Assembly (NCBI GenBank): GCA_002794785.1
Contig: NBBA01000010.1
Span: 1,550,001 to 1,614,000 of the forward strand
Origin: Coniferiporia sulphurascens
Taxonomy: Eukaryota; Basidiomycota; Agaricomycetes; Hymenochaetales; Hymenochaetaceae
Reading direction: 5' to 3'
Length of the DNA: 64,000 nt
Below, one piece after another: positions 1 to 57,903 of the stretch. Made by a program: the position numbers and the translations under genes. The notes beneath the pieces are model-generated. The model was not told the origin of the DNA, did not search any database, and worked only from the letters and a program-made list of their open reading frames with translations. Each line of letters begins with the position of its first letter. Positions within the stretch are counted from its first letter, which is position 1.

Positions 1-1200
1 CGCTTGCGTTTTTATTAATTGACACATGGACTTGCAGGAAGCCAGAGAAGAATTGGCCACTTGAGATCCACAAAAGGTCAATTTAGAGCCCTTAATACTA
101 GAGGAAGTAAGGCACGCACAGACTCCACAATGTAACGTCCGGGCATACTATGAAATCATCAGCACATTCCCCTGACAAAGTATACTCCGTGCGACTCACA
201 CTGTCCTGATGGGCAAAGGCCGAGTCAAGTCACGTCTCGGAATATCAATCATGCGACGTACCTCCCGAACGCTGCAGTTTAAAAGCTCAGCAATCGGATT
301 CACCGATAAAACGAAAAGCTACATACCAAACTGAGCTCTTTGGTTCTCGAGCACCACTGGCTCTGTCAAGGACTTTATGCGACTGCCATAACTGACTGAG
401 AATGCTACCGAGGTCGCATATCTTAAATTGTTATTAAGTGACAGTAGGGTAGACTTTGAAAAGAATATAGGACCTCTTTATGACCCCTGTATAGTTGTCG
501 GGTGCTGCGACAAGGTCGCGCATGAGTATACTTGACTCGAGGGTCTGCACAAGGCGATACGGATGCGCAGCTTTCCCACTCATCCCCATATGCTGGAACT
601 GCGAGTTGCTCAATACATTTTCTTTCATTCCGTTTTCTGAACTGGTGCAGATACCTTCCGCCACTGTCTGTACCGAGGACCATACTGCATACCTAATCCT
701 CGCATATTTCCTGAAAGTATCTCCTGACTGAGATTTGGTAAGCACTCAATATGGATTTCACATAGGTGGCAATAATGTATGTACCCCATAATGTTCCGAG
801 GACGACTTGAGTAGATCTCGCCCTTTTTGTCCAGTAAATCATAGGCCGACTTCGCATCGTTGAGTACTGGGAAGAAATCTTAACGGTTGTATTCATTGTA
901 ACACCAACAAAGGGGGCCCACCGATATTGGGCGTCCGGCCAAGATAAAATGAGATGATCGGGCCTGCAAATTCCGTAAGAAATAACCGAAACAATAGAGC
1001 GATGTGACTTATGGCATACTCTTGTACTCTCGAGACCACTCTACAAATTTCTTCCAGGGCTCAACATCTGGCACTTGTATTCTGTTGTCGCCCAATAAAC
1101 CCGTCGGTGGACCAGGCGGGAGACCGCGGGGCTTCCGTTTAAGCAAGTAAATTATGAATGAAGCGAGTACAACAGTTGTGATGATGATATTGTCCAGCAT
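1..1200 (-). CDS. Cytochrome P450 A, 5' part (gene runs off the left edge)
   Basis: N-terminal half of a microsomal P450, a heme monooxygenase. Nine exons splice in frame (1200-1020, 963-922, 866-785, 727-655, 598-474, 421-327, 271-262, 147-120, 59-36), giving 220 codons. Visible are an N-terminal membrane anchor, the proline hinge LPPGPP, the KKGEIYSSRP segment before helix B, a C-helix GMQYGPRYRQWRK containing the WxxxR-type motif, and VAFSVSYGSRI. The I-helix, ExxR and heme loop lie beyond position 1. Exon borders and protein match P450 J (36.8-39.4 kb), so the two are paralogues. Exon 7 is only 10 nt. The last visible intron starts with GC (GCAAGT) rather than GT. Substrate unknown; no break is seen in the visible part. 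Confidence 0.8.
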
Positions 1201-55809: not shown

Positions 55810-57903
55810 ATGTGCCAGCAGTGTCTCGACAAGCCCAAGACGTTCCACGTGCCCCAGTGGTAAGTCCTGCCCGCCCGGGCCCCGACCCAATCACCCCCCA
55901 TCATCCTGACGTCTTGTCCGTCCTAGGTCCGTCTCCCAGATCAAGAACGCCATCCCTGCCCGCCTCTTCGAGCGACACGCCTCCACCTCCCTATACCACA
56001 CCGCCCGTGATGTCCTCATGGCTGCCGCACTCGCCTACGCCGCCTGGAGCTTCGACGCCGTTCTTGAGGCCCGCAGAGTCGCGGCTGCGCCTGGAGCGCA
56101 GGCTGTGTATTTCGCTGCCCTTCGTGGAGCTATGTGGTGCTCGTAGTGCGTTTTTTGATCGTCCGCCGACTGCTGGGCACTGTTCCGATGATGCTCTTTC
56201 TGCTTCCGGTAGTTGGTGGTTCCAGGGCTTGACGTTCACTGGTCTCTGGGTCATCGCGCACGAGGTTCGTCCGGTCCCGTTTTTACCTCTAACCTTGCTG
56301 AAAACTCGTACAGTGCGGCCATAGTGCGTTCTCGCCGTATCCCGTCCTTAACGACGCAGTCGGCTTCGTACGTCAAAGTTCTCCATCCCCTACCAACCAA
56401 CGCACGTGACTATATGCTAATCCTGTCCGCCTTGCCAGGTCCTGCACTCTTTCCTCGGCACGCCGTACTTTAGCTGGAAGTACACGCATCGCCTGCATCA
56501 TCGCTATAATGGACACATGGAGAAGGACGAGCAGTGCGTTCCGTTCCGTTCAATTGTTCTCTCGCGTAGACCGATTTTCTGACTTTTGTTTGCGCCTTTC
56601 TCTCCGTTTGCCTCTGCTGCTGCATTGCAGCTGGATACCCAAATCACGCGACCACCCCCCCTCCGCCGACGCTCATGAACGCGAACATGGACACGGGAAC
56701 TTGGGCCTCTGGGAATTCGTCGAGGACACACCGATCTTCCAGCTCGCGCAGCTCCTCGTACAACAAGCCTTCGGCTTCCAGGGCTACCTCCTCTTCAACA
56801 TCTCCGGCCAGCCGACGTACCCGCAATGGACGTCCCATTTTGACCGTGCGTACCTCTCTCTCCCCTCTCTCTTCGACTTTTGGCGAAATACGCTGACTCG
56901 GATGTCTCCCTCTCGAAAACAGCGTACAGCACCCTCTTCCGCGCAGACCAGCGCCTCGCCATCGCGCTCTCCGACGCCGGCATCCTCCTCACGCTCTTCC
57001 TCCTCTCGCTCTCTTCCGCCTCCTCCTCCCTGGGGCTCTCGACTGCAGCGATATGGCGGCTCTACGGCATCCCGTGGTTCATGCTCAACAACTGGATCAC
57101 GATGATCGTGTTCCTGCAGCACACGGACGCGGCGATTCCGCATTATAGGAAGGAGGCGTGGACGTATGCGAGGGGCGCGCTGGCGACTGTTGATAGAGCG
57201 TTTTTGGGCTGGATGGGAAAGTTCTTTTTGCATGGTGTGAGTACAGGAGGGCCAGCCTTTTTTTTCTTACTTTCTTCTTTTCCCCTTTCTCTGTACCTCT
57301 CTTTCTATGTACCTCTGTTTCTCTATACTGCGAGTCAAAACTTGGTTGCGGTTGCTGATTTAAAACGGTTGCTAAATTGCTTGATATTTTCTAGGTCGCG
57401 CATTTCCATGTTGTGCACCACTTCTTCCCTAAGATGCCTTTTTGTACGTCCCGCGTTTCCCCCCCTCCTCCTTCCTTTCTTCCTTCCGTCGCTCATTTCC
57501 TCACCCCCCATTCCATCGACGAACACGAACAGACCACCTCGAAGAAGCGACCGCGCACGCCAAGGAAGTGCTAGGCCGCGACTACTACGAGTGCAACACG
57601 CCTGTATTCAAGGCGCTGTGGGAGAACCACAGGCATTGTCAGTATGTCGACTCTAAGGGTACGTGTTTTACTTTTCTTTCTTTAATTAATTAATTAAATT
57701 TTTTTTTTCGTCTTGCGCTCTTACGCTCGCACCGTTCTCGTCTCACCTTGGTTCTCTATCGTCCAGGTGCGATCGTGTTCTACAAAGACAAGACTGGCAC
57801 TGCGCTCGTTCGTACGCCCGCCGAGGCCGAAGCCGAGGGTGACCATGCGGATGCGAATGCGAGGGTGGGACTCGGAGTGGTCGATTCGGACCACTCGGAC
57901 TGA
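55810..57903 (+). CDS. FAD2/delta-12-type membrane fatty acid desaturase O
   Basis: Membrane di-iron desaturase, about 434 residues, paralogue of B with the same intron plan. Short first exon (MCQQCLDKPKTFHVPQ), then SQIKNAIPARLFERHASTSL. Box 1 HECGH (near 103-107), split by an intron between Glu and Cys; box 2 HRLHHRYNGHMEKDE; box 3 HVVHHFFPKMPF (His335-His339). WWFQGLTFTGLWVIAHE and GDTP-like VEDTPIF segments align with B. The position after HECGH is Ser, and box 2 has Leu and Tyr where HRRHH-N-T-G is common. It could be a delta-12 desaturase, an acetylenase or another FAD2 variant. The C terminus carries an extra acidic tail ending DSDHSD. Divergent from N, convergent with P. Confidence 0.9.

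What the first reader, a model, noticed from the sequence alone, without database searches (positions are those of the whole stretch)
1..57903. A cluster of tailoring enzymes without a PKS, NRPS or terpene synthase: candidate fatty-acid-derived natural-product pathway
Seen: 6 P450s, 2 FAD2-like desaturases, 2 peroxisomal alpha/beta-hydrolases plus 1 relic, 2 secreted BBE oxidases, an SDR, a DHA2 exporter and a DUF6534 protein in about 58 kb, with no classical core enzyme. Known: FAD2-family desaturases include acetylenases, and MpaH-like hydrolases work in peroxisomes on CoA esters. Inference: the backbone is a fatty acid that is desaturated or acetylenated, shortened by beta-oxidation, released and oxidised, as expected for a polyacetylene or oxylipin. 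Cluster finders that need a core gene would miss it.
Basis: partly seen in the sequence, partly recalled or inferred. Interest (0 to 1): 0.88.

Follow-up and report, generated by a model that had tools for sequence, protein, structure and literature searches.

The report
Fungal fatty-acid-modifying gene cluster
A wood-decay fungus carries neighbouring genes that probably turn an ordinary fatty acid into a specialised, possibly triple-bonded, chemical, and a small core of them lies together in some related fungi too.

Summary
The gene list holds. I find 6 P450 genes (one crosses the left edge), 2 FAD2-type desaturases, 2 alpha/beta-hydrolases plus a relic, 2 berberine-bridge (BBE) oxidases, an SDR, an MFS transporter and two (not one) DUF6534 genes; no ketoacyl-synthase or terpene-synthase match. 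A sesquiterpene synthase lies 6.4 kb beyond the right edge, past housekeeping genes.

New support: H1 and H2 end in peroxisomal signals (SKL, SRL). H1's orthologue and H2 match only MpaH' and Lpx1 among PDB sequences. Of 15 H1 relatives found, four are from Hymenochaetales; in each of those species a FAD2-A relative lies on a contig of the same length, in three of them one or two locus tags away. P450-B is there too in two. FAD2-A is not the housekeeping-type desaturase and carries a plant-acetylenase motif (DVAH); FAD2-B does not (GVAH). A second copy on contig C2 keeps an open P450-B beside decayed hydrolase and desaturase copies.

A conserved FAD2-A/hydrolase pair, with P450-B in the closest relatives, is well supported. 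The whole 58 kb as one pathway, and an acetylenic product, remain inference; no activity, expression or metabolite was tested. Partly supported; new variant of a known kind.

The parts
1..1206 (-). P450-A, 5' part (start approximate); the gene continues to 1277 bp left of the window
   Evidence: 52% identical to P450-F
3212..5030 (-). DUF6534 membrane protein (approximate model)
   Evidence: PF20152 E 9e-9, partial profile; exon chain uncertain
7571..9343 (-). FAD2-A, FAD2-type desaturase, acetylenase-like; boxes HECGH, HHRHH, HVVHH with DVAH before the third
   Evidence: 97% to Coniferiporia weirii M0805_009403
10711..12935 (+). P450-B, haem motif FGFGRRRCPG
   Evidence: 87% to C. weirii M0805_009402
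12932..14352 (-). H1, MpaH-like alpha/beta-hydrolase ending SKL (peroxisomal-type signal)
   Evidence: its orthologue P0121
15237..18107 (+). BBE1, FAD-linked oxidase with signal-peptide-like N-terminus (by eye)
   Evidence: PF01565, PF08031
20573..23736 (-). BBE2, FAD-linked oxidase, 46% to BBE1
24675..27052 (-). P450-C (start approximate)
   Evidence: 88% to C. weirii M0805_006561 over 379 residues
28920..31245 (-). P450-D
   Evidence: 85% to M0805_006560
33347..35722 (-). P450-E
   Evidence: 93% to M0805_006559
36825..39356 (+). P450-F
   Evidence: PF00067 E 2e-73
40365..42482 (+). second DUF6534 membrane protein
   Evidence: PF20152 E 1e-17
43777..45351 (-). H2, MpaH-like hydrolase ending SRL
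   Evidence: 34% to H1
48454..50196 (-). extended SDR reductase ending SKI
   Evidence: PF01370
52701..55210 (-). MFS transporter (TRI12-like)
   Evidence: PF07690, PF06609
55810..57903 (+). FAD2-B, divergent FAD2-type desaturase; boxes HECGH, HRLHH, HVVHH with GVAH before the third
58423..60690 (-). 2-oxoglutarate dehydrogenase E2-like gene (DLST), housekeeping right flank; 5' end approximate
   Evidence: named by eye; PF00198 at one of three loci in the genome
61266..62218 (+). decayed H2-like hydrolase relic
   Evidence: by eye; tblastn with H2 E 2e-12

Best explanation
The locus is a specialised-metabolite cluster whose backbone is a fatty acid. Proposed route: FAD2-A at the ER adds a further unsaturation, most likely a triple bond, to linoleate; FAD2-B may add another double bond; the acid is activated by a CoA ligase encoded elsewhere and shortened by ordinary peroxisomal beta-oxidation; H1 and/or H2 in the peroxisome cleave the CoA ester at a chosen chain length, as MpaH does for mycophenolic acid; P450-B and other P450s hydroxylate it, the SDR and secreted BBE oxidases adjust the oxidation state, and the MFS pump exports it. 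Shown: gene content, peroxisomal-type tails, MpaH-like sequence and fold, acetylenase motif on FAD2-A, co-location of FAD2-A and H1 relatives in four genera and of P450-B in two of them. Inferred: every catalytic step, the order, and the membership of the outer genes.
Against: FAD2-A relatives are widespread (1192 at E up to 1e-20, 120 listed), and the motif is near-universal in those 120, so it cannot mark this pathway alone. Two other Hymenochaetales, Fomitiporia and Schizopora, have the FAD2 but no hydrolase among the 15. In Agrocybe and Amanita the listed FAD2 and hydrolase lie on contigs of different length. For Phellinidium no P450-B relative, and for Sanghuangporus only a 38% one with a distant tag, was listed. 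FAD2-B fails the motif. No AMP-binding match lay on the contig (search incomplete). GC rises near 44 kb, so two neighbouring loci are possible. A sesquiterpene synthase lies 12.5 kb from FAD2-B.
Confidence: 0.58

Rival explanations
1. Only a small module (FAD2-A, H1, P450-B, perhaps BBE1) is one pathway; the rest is a P450 tandem array plus a second, separate locus (H2, SDR, MFS, FAD2-B) that happens to adjoin.
For: Linkage outside this genome was seen only for FAD2-A, H1 and P450-B. P450 C, D, E are tandem duplicates. GC per 2 kb is 0.46-0.52 up to 44 kb and 0.50-0.55 from 44 to 60 kb. No shared promoter word that I could claim.
Against: Both halves hold the unusual pairing of a non-housekeeping FAD2 with an MpaH-like hydrolase, and genes that look housekeeping flank the whole stretch on both sides.
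Confidence: 0.3
2. Fatty-acid pathway, but not acetylenic: FAD2-A makes a desaturated, epoxy or hydroxy acid that is shortened to a volatile, lactone or oxylipin.
For: FAD2 relatives are functionally plastic (PMC3554562, passages); 5 of the 120 listed FAD2-A relatives are labelled epoxygenase; the motif is a plant-derived proxy.
Against: FAD2-A matches the published plant acetylenase motif and the C21 copy does not.
Confidence: 0.25
3. A sesquiterpenoid cluster: the terpene synthase at C10:1620440-1621677 is the core and the P450s and oxidases tailor its product; the desaturases are incidental.
For: An apparently intact synthase (PF19086 E 4e-49; PDB match 7ofl E 4e-92) lies 12.5 kb from FAD2-B. 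With 8 to 10 such loci in the genome, one this close to an edge has a chance of about 0.006 under random placement (10 loci), though I looked only after choosing the locus.
Against: DLST, a gene that looks like a Rab geranylgeranyltransferase subunit (by eye) and another gene lie between; it does not explain two desaturases or MpaH-like hydrolases beside FAD2-A in other genera.
Confidence: 0.08
4. Primary lipid metabolism or detoxification genes clustered by chance and tandem duplication.
For: P450 arrays are common in this genome.
Against: The genome has a separate housekeeping-type FAD2 on C21; H1 relatives are linked to FAD2 in four genera.
Confidence: 0.05

Closest known systems
Tomato falcarindiol cluster (Jeon et al. 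2020, as described in PMC8418127, passages)
   Same: Starts from linoleate, has no classical core enzyme, and combines an acetylenase with a further fatty acid desaturase.
   Different: Plant; a decarbonylase is listed; the passages I saw name no peroxisomal hydrolase, P450 or BBE oxidase. Its chemistry is reported, ours is untested.
Mycophenolic acid cluster and MpaH (PMC9134587, PMC11934065, passages)
   Same: A peroxisomal acyl-CoA hydrolase with a C-terminal signal is encoded in the cluster while the CoA ligase is encoded outside it; beta-oxidation shortens the chain.
   Different: The MPA cluster has a PKS core, and no desaturase is among the genes named in the passages; H1's orthologue is only 22-23% identical to MpaH' over the structural alignment; H2 was not measured this way.
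Cantharellus formosus acetylenase (Blacklock et al. 2010; only the reference-list entry seen; the rest recalled)
   Same: Basidiomycete acetylenase, FAD2-type as I recall.
   Different: A single enzyme; I know of no gene cluster reported with it. Its sequence was not at hand, so no comparison was made.
Bacterial polyyne clusters (PMC8406139 and PMC9098870, abstract starts in the listing)
   Same: Gene clusters that make polyynes; desaturases in them are recalled.
   Different: Bacterial; the carrier-protein and thioesterase architecture that I recall is not among the genes typed here.

Membership tests
FAD2-type membrane fatty acid desaturase | PF00487 and three histidine boxes | tested here: met
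   FAD2-B PF00487 E 3e-23; the FAD2-A relatives listed carry PF00487; boxes read
FAD2-type acetylenase | (D/N)VX(H/N) before the third box (plant motif, PMC3554562, passages) | tested here: met
   met by FAD2-A only (DVAH); 112 of 120 relatives fit; FAD2-B GVAH and the C21 copy GISE do not
FAD2-type acetylenase | Gly directly before the first box | tested here: inconclusive
   FAD2-A has Gly, but so does the C21 copy, so it does not discriminate here; FAD2-B has Ala
FAD2-type acetylenase | Triple-bond formation on linoleate | not testable with these tools
   no assay
MpaH-like peroxisomal acyl-CoA hydrolase | Sequence and fold similarity to MpaH' | tested here: met
MpaH-like peroxisomal acyl-CoA hydrolase | C-terminal peroxisomal signal | tested here: met
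   H1 SKL, H2 SRL; 11 of 15 relatives end in x(K/R)L, of which TRL, HKL, GKL and FKL are weaker forms; the other 4 look partial or mis-ended
MpaH-like peroxisomal acyl-CoA hydrolase | Catalytic Ser, acid, His | tested here: met
   serine of the GHSxG motif invariant in 15 of 15, histidine nearly invariant (90% or more), an acidic residue aligns with MpaH'; which acid acts is not shown
MpaH-like peroxisomal acyl-CoA hydrolase | Acyl-CoA hydrolysis | not testable with these tools
   no assay
Biosynthetic gene cluster conserved between species | Same genes stay neighbours in relatives | tested here: met
   met for FAD2-A with H1 in 4 Hymenochaetales genera and for P450-B in 2 of these; not seen in Fomitiporia or Schizopora; the outer genes were not tested
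Biosynthetic gene cluster conserved between species | Co-expression | not tested
   no expression data held
PKS, NRPS or terpene cluster | Core synthase inside the cluster | tested here: not met
   no ketoacyl-synthase or terpene-synthase match in the window; terpene synthase 6.4 kb outside; the AMP-binding search for NRPS was incomplete

The most novel reading that the evidence does not exclude
This would be the first gene cluster for a basidiomycete acetylenic fatty-acid metabolite. A FAD2-type acetylenase is paired with a dedicated peroxisomal hydrolase that sets chain length, and this pairing, rather than any synthase, is the signature by which such clusters can be found in Hymenochaetales.
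Probability: 0.38. Interest if true: 0.8.

Novelty: new variant of a known kind. Interest (0 to 1): 0.62.

Why it matters
Alkynyl compounds of mushrooms have been isolated for about 70 years. One review lists 213 of them, and the terms 'gene cluster' and 'desaturase' do not occur in its main text (PMC10636002, passages and discussion section). A 2020 paper still speaks of potential polyyne genes to be identified (PMC7692509, passage). In the listings of my searches I saw no published basidiomycete cluster for such compounds; several listings were partial (25 of 136, 20 of 38, 15 of 585) and only the held open-access library was searched. A FAD2-A/P450-B/peroxisomal hydrolase set gives a small, concrete group of genes to test and a search signature that synthase-based cluster finders would not use. 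It would also extend the MPA trick, a cluster-encoded peroxisomal hydrolase that closes beta-oxidation, to a pathway that starts from a plain fatty acid.

Tried and rejected
Shared promoter motif: 7-mers CCGGCTA and AGACCCT looked enriched against random flanking pieces, but against dinucleotide shuffles of the same promoters the best word was matched or beaten in 3 of 150 shuffles. That is suggestive at most, and the best word there was a different one, so I do not claim a regulon. CGG-N-CCG pairs with gaps 0-12: nothing that I could claim (highest N7, 6 of 16 promoters against 71 of 600 background pieces, not corrected for 13 gaps tried).

DLST as a self-resistance copy: not supported, since the genome has three E2-type loci, as expected for the three housekeeping complexes (the expectation is recalled).

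FAD2-A as the housekeeping desaturase: rejected, since C21:77 kb has an ordinary delta-12-type sequence (the type judged by eye).

P450 count as proof of a cluster: rejected, since the genome holds many P450 exons, often in arrays (92 of 301 candidates scored, so counts are lower bounds).

Rarity of the H1 family: I do not claim it. The search gave 15 proteins, but it needs shared words; no H2 orthologue was listed, and this genome has further MpaH-like exons on C1 and C20.

Solved relatives of FAD2-A: none by sequence, tested with its orthologue P0001. The first gene-finder run drifted to GC-rich genes and was replaced. A frameshift called in P450-A came from a poor guide.
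Full report
What was checked. The window is positions 1,550,001-1,614,000 of contig C10 in a 39.35 Mb, 31-contig genome. Its FAD2-A protein is 97% identical, H1 89% and P450-B 87% identical to Coniferiporia weirii proteins, so the source is most likely a Coniferiporia species other than that C. weirii strain (inference; no tool named the genome). Gene models are computed, without RNA evidence, and several were edited by hand at intron borders.

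Six P450s, two FAD2-type desaturases, two complete MpaH-like hydrolases and a relic, two BBE oxidases, an SDR and an MFS transporter were modelled. One search typed ten proteins by Pfam, nine of them from the window; searches list Pfam domains for close relatives of FAD2-A, H1 and P450-B to E; P450-A was identified by alignment to P450-F. There are two DUF6534 genes, not one. P450-A crosses the left edge. P450s C, D and E are a tandem family (57-59% identical), B is more distant (43-48%), and A and F form a second family (52%).

Boundaries and core enzymes. I fetched 80 kb to the left and 40 kb to the right. On the left, past P450-A, come a gene that I recognise by eye as a COG7-like Golgi subunit, a probable transcription factor, an SDR and an LPMO-like gene. 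On the right come DLST, a Rab geranylgeranyltransferase-like gene, another gene, DUF6534-like pieces (all by eye) and, at C10:1620440-1621677, a sesquiterpene synthase with PF19086 E 4e-49 and PDB relative 7ofl E 4e-92. Ketoacyl-synthase hits lie on C4, C11 and C1 only (all 12 candidates scored). Terpene synthase hits give 8 to 10 loci, depending on how close exons are merged, of which one is on C10 (all 13 scored). AMP-binding hits do not include C10, but only 15 of 44 candidates were scored.

The desaturases. Besides FAD2-A and FAD2-B the genome holds a decayed FAD2-A copy on C2 and a delta-12-type gene on C21. The FAD2-A search gave 1192 proteins at E up to 1e-20, of which I saw the best 120. 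They come from across Agaricomycetes, and at least 13 of the 120 are named linoleoyl-phosphatidylcholine delta-12 acetylenase, presumably by automatic annotation. The plant literature gives a motif (D/N)VX(H/N) before the third His box for acetylenases (PMC3554562, passages). FAD2-A has DVAH; 112 of the 120 fit (111 DVAH, 1 DVSH); FAD2-B has GVAH and the C21 gene GISE, both outside the motif. FAD2-B is 45-46% identical to FAD2-A and branches outside the 121 other sequences when the tree is rooted on C21. The motif supports FAD2-A as acetylenase-type, but it is so widespread among its relatives that it cannot by itself predict a polyacetylene.

Conservation. The H1 search returned 15 proteins at E up to 1e-10. 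Four are from Hymenochaetales, nine from other named fungi and two unnamed. In all four of the first group a FAD2-A relative of the same species is on a contig of the same length: C. weirii M0805_009401 with 009403; Phellinidium pouzarii EW145_g4060 with g4062; Sanghuangporus sanghuang ACEPAF_214 with ACEPAF_213; Phellopilus nigrolimitatus, contig of 216,275 bases. P450-B's orthologue is M0805_009402, between the two in C. weirii, with a further copy at 009399, and the Phellopilus relative is on the 216,275-base contig as well. For Phellinidium no P450-B relative was listed, and for Sanghuangporus only one of 38% identity with a distant tag (7995 candidates scored, 120 rows shown). Outside the order, the listed FAD2 and hydrolase of Agrocybe pediades and Amanita thiersii lie on contigs of different length; for the other seven named entries no FAD2 of the same species was among the 120. 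Within the order, Fomitiporia mediterranea and Schizopora paradoxa have the FAD2 (order) but no hydrolase among the 15. P450s C, D and E correspond to consecutive C. weirii tags 006561, 006560 and 006559 on a separate 15.7 kb contig, which neither joins nor separates them from the core.

A second copy. On C2 a P450-B copy (90% identical, open throughout) stands tail to tail with a decayed hydrolase copy, as in the window, and a decayed FAD2-A copy lies about 20 kb away. The stretch between was fetched; none of the 18 proteins that I compared matched there at E up to 1e-4. The simplest reading is that the module was duplicated and that two of its three genes then decayed. This is not an independent association, but it shows the three within one duplicated stretch.

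Reading. The best-supported statement is that FAD2-A, H1 and, at least near Coniferiporia, P450-B form a functional module that modifies a fatty acid and releases a shortened acid in the peroxisome. In MPA biosynthesis, too, the cluster supplies the peroxisomal hydrolase while the CoA ligase lies outside it (PMC9134587, PMC11934065, passages), so a missing ligase here is no objection. The tomato falcarindiol cluster shows that an acetylenase plus a second desaturase can found a cluster without a synthase (PMC8418127, passages). A polyacetylene, biformin, is reported from another Hymenochaetales species (PMC13292771, one passage). Whether the outer genes belong, and whether a triple bond is made, is open. 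The rise in GC near 44 kb and the pairing of H2 with FAD2-B leave room for two adjoining loci.

Limits. No expression, enzyme or metabolite data were available. Linkage in relatives rests on locus tags and contig lengths, not on fetched sequence. Signal peptides and several flanking genes were judged by eye.

Noticed in passing
G000:C10:1620440-1621677 (6.4 kb right of the window): Apparently intact sesquiterpene synthase near DUF6534-like pieces; best PDB relative 7ofl, then AcCop4.
   Followed up: partly
G000:C2:751007-754298 and 774293-775861: Duplicate of the P450-B/H1 pair and of FAD2-A: the P450 is open and 90% identical, the other two are decayed with stops and frameshifts.
   Followed up: yes
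window about 44000: GC per 2 kb rises from 0.46-0.52 to 0.50-0.55, with a tRNA-Ala at 43096-43168, which may mark a seam between two loci.
   Followed up: no
window 48454-50196: The SDR ends in SKI, a possible weak peroxisomal signal.
   Followed up: no
window 14797 and 45738: The 10-mer CAACCGGCTA occurs upstream of both hydrolase genes; its core 7-mer was not convincing in a wider test.
   Followed up: partly
G000:C1:86933-87857 and C20:382554-382790: Further MpaH-like hydrolase exons; no FAD2 match was listed near them.
   Followed up: no
G000:C10, about 71.9-46.7 kb and 42-13 kb left of the window: Long stretches where the gene finder kept no gene; possibly repeat-rich.
   Followed up: no
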